Shown one piece after another: positions 2,549 through 2,720 of a stretch of 35,767 nucleotides of DNA. Within the stretch, counting starts at the first letter, position 1. Each line of letters opens with the position of its first letter. The DNA lies in the NCBI GenBank assembly GCA_021804985.1, contig JAJZGD010000007.1, forward strand, positions 1-35,767, given 5' to 3'. The notes beneath the pieces were generated by a model that saw only the letters and a program-made list of their open reading frames with translations, was not told the origin of the DNA and did not search any database. The translations under genes and the position numbers were made by a program. The stretch is from Planctomycetota bacterium. Its GTDB lineage: Bacteria > Planctomycetota > Phycisphaerae > WQYP01.

Positions 2549-2720
2549 GCCGGCCTGGACCAAGCTCTGCGGCGGCCGTCGGGGGCCTAGAACGGATCGG
2601 TCGTGGGCCGGCCGTTGTGTCGGCATGACTCCTCGCTGCGCTCGTCGTCACACCGACACAACGCAGTTTAGTAGAACCGACCTGACGGCGATTATCCATA
2701 GACTTCAACATACAAGAATG
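2549..2720 (-). ncRNA. Candidate bridge RNA of the IS110 element
   Basis: The non-coding upstream end can form two hairpins that abut exactly. The first has a perfect 11 bp stem, CGTTGTGTCGG at 2613-2623 with CCGACACAACG at 2653-2663, enclosing 29 bases. The second has a perfect 7 bp stem, GCCGGCC at 2549-2555 with GGCCGGC at 2606-2612. Read on the minus strand the order is first hairpin then second, the order of target-binding and donor-binding loops in described IS110 bridge RNAs. The first loop contains, on the plus strand, CTGCG and CGTCGTC, words that also occur around the target junction (on the minus strand, GTCGTCGTTCTCTGCGTC). RNA ends are guesses; no promoter was identified. Confidence 0.5.

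What the first reader, a model, noticed from the sequence alone, without database searches (positions are those of the whole stretch)
2549..2720. Two abutting hairpins in the IS110 upstream end look like a bridge RNA
Seen: a perfect 11 bp stem (2613-2623 with 2653-2663) and a perfect 7 bp stem (2549-2555 with 2606-2612) lie end to end in the non-coding end before the transposase. Known: IS110-group elements encode a bridge RNA there, with a target-binding loop first and a donor-binding loop second. Inferred: the first loop carries CTGCG and CGTCGTC (plus strand), which are also the two half-site words at the insertion point in swapped order, and the second loop carries CTCTGCGG, resembling the junction. 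If right, both guide and natural target of an undescribed bridge recombinase are readable in this window.
Basis: partly seen in the sequence, partly recalled or inferred. Interest (0 to 1): 0.72.

Follow-up and report, generated by a model that had tools for sequence, protein, structure and literature searches.

The report
IS110 bridge RNA with shifted assignment

Summary
The two hairpins are real, and the region does encode an IS110-group bridge RNA on the minus strand. Hairpin 1 (2613-2663) is the 5' stem-loop, not the target loop: its loop stays nearly constant in close relatives that have different targets. Hairpin 2 (2549-2612) is the target-binding loop, with left guide UCCGUUCU and right guide CGCAGAG.

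All three hairpins covary: 36 of 39 pairs have changes on both sides in 33 sequences. In 24 elements, each of three guides matches its own element's flank or end better than any of 5,000 re-pairings. The guides spell CGTT-CT-CTGCG, an 11-mer found 23 times in the host genome (reversed control: 1), inside an intergenic repeat. The RE-LE junction of the circular form would create a promoter, as in IS621. The recombinase keeps the DEDD and serine residues of IS621.

Verdict: a new member of a known kind. RNA expression and activity were not testable.

The parts
1473..2716 (-). whole IS110-group element, core to core (LE begins CTTGTATGTTGAAG; RE ends ...ACACAGCCG followed by CT)
   Evidence: ends fixed by conserved LE and RE termini in 27 aligned elements and by empty sites of the flanking repeat in the same genome
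1491..2471 (-). IS110 recombinase, 327 aa, DEDD plus serine; residues D20, E64, D106, D109, S245 line up with the IS621 catalytic set
   Evidence: PF01548 1.3e-21 and PF02371 6.5e-19; IS621 9e-40 and ISCro4 1e-38; residues read from the alignment, taking the chain numbering as two above the published one (one search prints the neighbouring positions)
2613..2663 (-).
   Evidence: 17 of 17 pairs with changes on both sides among 33 sequences; loop nearly invariant in close relatives with other targets
   Evidence: covariation; guides match own flanks across elements
2589..2596 (-). left target guide UCCGUUCU (core CU last); [quoted passage not shown]
   Evidence: own flank CCCATT-CT pairs 8/8 with two wobbles; four other copies in the genome have CGTT-CT on the left; LT signal z 7.1, 0/5000
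2565..2571 (-). right target guide CGCAGAG, reverse complement of CT-CTGCG
   Evidence: 7/7 with own right flank; RT signal z 10.0, 0/5000; 0/20000
   Evidence: covariation
2521..2529 (-). left donor guide ACAGCCGAU, same as RE end ACAGCCG-CT in 8 of 9
   Evidence: LD signal z 6.6, 0/5000
2483..2491 (-). probable right donor guide AUUCGCAAG; AU..GCAAG can pair discontiguously with CTTGTAT
   Evidence: inference from position and from the IS621 pattern of nine RNA bases on seven donor bases
1486..1491 (-). -35 box TTGACA in RE; meets -10 TATGTT of LE (about 2707-2712) with a 17-nt spacer in the circular form
   Evidence: 22 of 27 elements have a promoter-like pair at this place across the junction; none in the linear window 1400-2800
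2717..2726 (-). left target flank (ends ...CCCCCATT before CT)
1440..1470 (-). right target flank CTGCGTCTTCCCTGCTCTGCGTGAGATATTA, part of a dispersed repeat
   Evidence: recurs about 40 times in the same genome

Best explanation
The element's upstream end encodes an IS110-group bridge RNA of the IS621 type, transcribed toward the recombinase from a promoter that forms only when RE and LE join in the excised circle. It has a 5' stem-loop, a target-binding loop and a donor-binding loop. [quoted passage not shown] The donor loop's guides pair with the element's own RE-LE junction ACAGCCG-CT-TGTATG. The recombinase then swaps strands at the CT core. Because the target 11-mer sits in a dispersed, apparently intergenic repeat, the element can insert there without hitting genes. 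Shown here by sequence: ends, core, covarying stems, guide-flank and guide-donor correlation, promoter layout, conserved catalytic residues, empty sites. Inferred: transcription, RNA-protein binding, recombination.
For: Recombinase homologous to IS621 and ISCro4 with matching catalytic residues. Stem covariation: 8 of 40 pairs with both-side changes in the 5-sequence alignment; 36 of 39, with 95.4% of cells paired against 32-44% for slid controls, in 33 sequences. A covariance model built from five sequences finds the RNA directly upstream of recombinases only about 40% identical, E to 3e-21. In a matrix of 3 hairpins by 6 patterns in 24 elements, only TBL~LT (z 7.1), TBL~RT revcomp (z 10.0) and DBL~LD (z 6.6) reach 0/5000 permutations. 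Target 11-mer CGTTCTCTGCG occurs 23 times in the genome against 1 for the reversed pattern. Empty sites seen in the same repeat. Junction promoter in 22 of 27 elements.
Against: No expression data. At this copy the left guide pairs with its flank through two G-U wobbles, and the copy on contig C183 has an unrelated left flank. The right donor guide is only inferred. A few relatives (L067, L069) do not give a perfect right-guide match. The covariation alignment A4 was fitted to the model structure. No Rfam family reached threshold; whether that release includes bridge RNAs was not checked.
Confidence: 0.95

Rival explanations
1. One reading: hairpin 1 is the target loop and hairpin 2 the donor loop.
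For: Words CTGCG and CGTCGTC lie in loop 1; a weak RT signal exists for the 5' hairpin in both orientations (z 2.7 and 3.1, 28 and 13 of 5000).
Against: Loop 1 is nearly invariant in close relatives while targets differ; no LT signal (z 0.1 and 1.1); hairpin 2 shows no donor signal (z -0.5 and 0.0) but strong target signals; a third hairpin carries the donor match. An RT signal of equal size in both orientations is what a palindrome whose composition resembles its surroundings would give.
Confidence: 0.02
2. The hairpins are only a structured leader or attenuator of the recombinase mRNA, or a protein-binding end, with no guide function.
For: They lie directly upstream of the coding frame, and the open frame itself runs on through them (450-aa ORF).
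Against: Guide segments correlate with genomic flanks outside the element, which a leader would have no reason to do.
Confidence: 0.03

Closest known systems
IS621 (IS110 group, E. coli; PMC11208160, PMC11208158)
   Same: DEDD-serine recombinase, long LE upstream of the gene, 5' stem-loop then TBL then DBL, left guide like the top strand and right guide its reverse complement, CT core, promoter across RE-LE, insertion into dispersed repeats (REP in IS621)
   Different: Right guide here reads 7 nt (IS621 uses 4, though longer right guides are reported for other IS110s); the target repeat is a CTCTGCGTC-type repeat, not REP; 17-pair 5' stem; recombinase only distantly similar in sequence
ISCro4 (PDB 9t56)
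   Same: homologous recombinase (1e-38)
   Different: its bridge RNA and target were not compared here
IS1111 group
   Same: same recombinase family
   Different: its bridge RNA lies in RE downstream of the gene; here RE is only about 20 nt and the RNA is in LE

Membership tests
IS110-group bridge RNA element | recombinase with PF01548 and PF02371, DEDD and serine residues | tested here: met
IS110-group bridge RNA element | long non-coding LE upstream of the gene, short RE | tested here: met
   LE about 245 nt, RE about 20 nt
IS110-group bridge RNA element | structured RNA with 5' stem-loop, TBL and DBL, covarying among relatives | tested here: met
IS110-group bridge RNA element | TBL guides match target: left guide to left bottom strand, right guide to right top strand, both including the core | tested here: met
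IS110-group bridge RNA element | DBL left guide matches the element's own right end | tested here: met
IS110-group bridge RNA element | DBL right guide matches LE start | tested here: inconclusive
   AUUCGCAAG can pair discontiguously with CTTGTAT; the LE start is nearly invariant among relatives, so no correlation test was possible
IS110-group bridge RNA element | promoter reconstituted at the RE-LE junction | tested here: met
   sequence pattern only, 22 of 27 elements
IS110-group bridge RNA element | RNA is transcribed and bound by the recombinase; RNA-dependent recombination | not testable with these tools
   no expression or biochemical data
IS1111 group | bridge RNA in RE | tested here: not met
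   RE about 20 nt

The most novel reading that the evidence does not exclude
IS110 elements of several lineages have, by descent or convergence, aimed their guides at one widespread class of intergenic repeats (CTNNGNG-type motifs), so that these repeats act as a shared safe harbour and may themselves be kept or spread by the recombinases.
Probability: 0.15. Interest if true: 0.6.

Novelty: new member of a known kind. Interest (0 to 1): 0.34.

Why it matters
It is a clean, readable natural example: guide, donor and native target are all visible in one genome, with intact empty sites and several copies. It adds a CT-core recombinase with a 7-nt right guide to the set that could be tested for programmable insertion, and shows that such bridge RNAs can be found across a bacterial class with a covariance model built from five sequences. 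It does not change the understanding of the system.

Tried and rejected
Loop 1 as target loop was tested in both orientations against LT, RT and LD and rejected. Rfam gave no match. A promoter in the linear element was not found; it appears only across the junction. A text search for repeat words in papers found nothing. The target enrichment test for a relative (CGCSCTTCGCG in G002) gave only 19 against 10 for the control and is not counted as support. I considered whether the left-end-only remnants (C93, C131, C161, C197) reflect a special mechanism; there are only four, with mostly different breakpoints, and relatives hold remnants of the other end of the gene, so ordinary decay is enough.

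Full report
Observation. On the minus strand, the strand of the transposase, the first extends to 17 pairs. The whole upstream end folds more stably than shuffles, z -3.1.

The element. The ORF at 1491-2471 (minus strand) has both IS110 Pfam domains, and its only matches in the PDB at E 0.001 are IS621 (9e-40) and ISCro4 (1e-38). Its catalytic residues line up with those of IS621 (the chain numbering appears to be two above the published numbers, so the residues were read by eye from the alignment). The element starts at CTTGTATGTTGAAG (2716) and ends before CT at 1471-1472. The flanking sequence is a dispersed repeat: the 33 bases right of the element recur about 40 times in the genome. Empty sites read ...CGTCGTCGT(T)-CT-CTGCGTCTTCCCTGCTCTGCGTGAG.... 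At this copy the left flank differs (CCCCCATT). I think this is a three-unit version of the repeat, like that at L017, with the element in a middle unit; that is inference. The nearest relative by protein, L063, is the same locus as L021, from a Planctomycetota MAG, and its genome is of the same genus as the window's.

Anatomy of the RNA. I aligned the upstream ends of the window element and four relatives (51-66% protein identity), named a structure with three hairpins and counted pairs. 95% of cells pair, against 25-35% when the partners are slid, and eight pairs have changes on both sides. A covariance model from these five found the RNA in 27 of 397 genomes of the class, and upstream of recombinases only about 40% identical. 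In an alignment of 33 distinct sequences 36 of 39 pairs have changes on both sides, including all 17 of hairpin 1. That alignment was fitted to the structure, so the counts lean that way, but the slid controls are at 32-44%.

Which loop does what. The published geometry (PMC11208160) is this: the left guide reads like the top strand of the left target and ends in the core; the right guide is the reverse complement of core plus right target; the donor loop works likewise. I tested 24 elements with both flanks known. For each hairpin and each of six patterns I took the best match in the element's own RNA and compared it with 5,000 re-pairings of flanks and RNAs. Three of 18 combinations reach 0/5000: hairpin 2 with the left target (z 7.1), hairpin 2 with the reverse complement of the right target (z 10.0), and hairpin 3 with the left donor (z 6.6). 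An earlier test over the whole left end gave 0/20000 for each of the three. The 5' hairpin shows a weak right-target signal in both orientations (13 and 28 of 5000). With 18 tests this is marginal, and I have no explanation beyond composition and palindromy. In close relatives the hairpin 1 loop reads GACGAGCGNAGCGAGGA while the right targets are CTGCG, TCGCG, TCGTG and TGGCG.

Target. The guides spell CGTT-CT-CTGCG, which occurs 23 times in the 3.1-Mb genome against once for the reversed pattern (about 1.5 expected for random sequence of even composition). Four other copies of the left end in this genome have CGTT-CT at their left flank (L101, L105, L107, L108). One diverged copy (C161) and one at a contig end (C183) do not.

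Promoter. Across the RE-LE junction TTGACA and TATGTT lie 17 bases apart; 22 of 27 elements have a promoter-like pair at this place (several of the 27 are copies of one element), and none is found in the linear window region. This is the IS621 arrangement.

Side observation. Many relatives have targets of the same type: CTTCGCGG (L063, L026, L121), CTTCGTG (L064, L119, L124), CTTGGCG (L022, L143), CTTTGCGG (L066), CTCCGTGG (L070). In G069 the 12-mer CGTGCCTCCGTG occurs 79 times against 17 for the control; for L063's genome the enrichment is unconvincing. I found no paper naming these repeats by the words tried.

Verdict. This is a well-formed new member of the IS110 bridge-RNA kind. Function is inferred from sequence; expression and activity were not tested.

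Noticed in passing
L101, L105, L106, L108 (contigs C197, C131, C161, C93 of the window's genome): Four left-end-only remnants of this element, all beginning exactly at CTTGTATG and broken off after 82-232 nt, without a matching right end; two break next to the left target guide.
   Followed up: partly
L007 98-113 (contig C182): The right end of another copy is followed by CTTGTATGTTCAAGTC, nearly the element's own left end, then unrelated sequence; looks like insertion beside an old left-end remnant.
   Followed up: partly
L063, L064, L022, L026, L066, L070, L119, L121, L124, L143, insertion sites: IS110 elements of several lineages are inserted in CTNNGNG-type repeats; their right guides follow the local variant (CTCTGCG, CTTCGCG, CTTCGTG, CTTGGCG, CTTTGCG, CTCCGTG).
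   Followed up: partly
window 2613-2663 and 5' hairpins of relatives: The 5' hairpin shows a weak correlation with the right target in both orientations across 24 elements (13 and 28 of 5000 permutations).
   Followed up: no
L063 (same locus as L021), 5' hairpin: A 22-nt loop unit (GACGAGCGAAGCGAGGAGTCAC) is tandemly duplicated in this relative.
   Followed up: no
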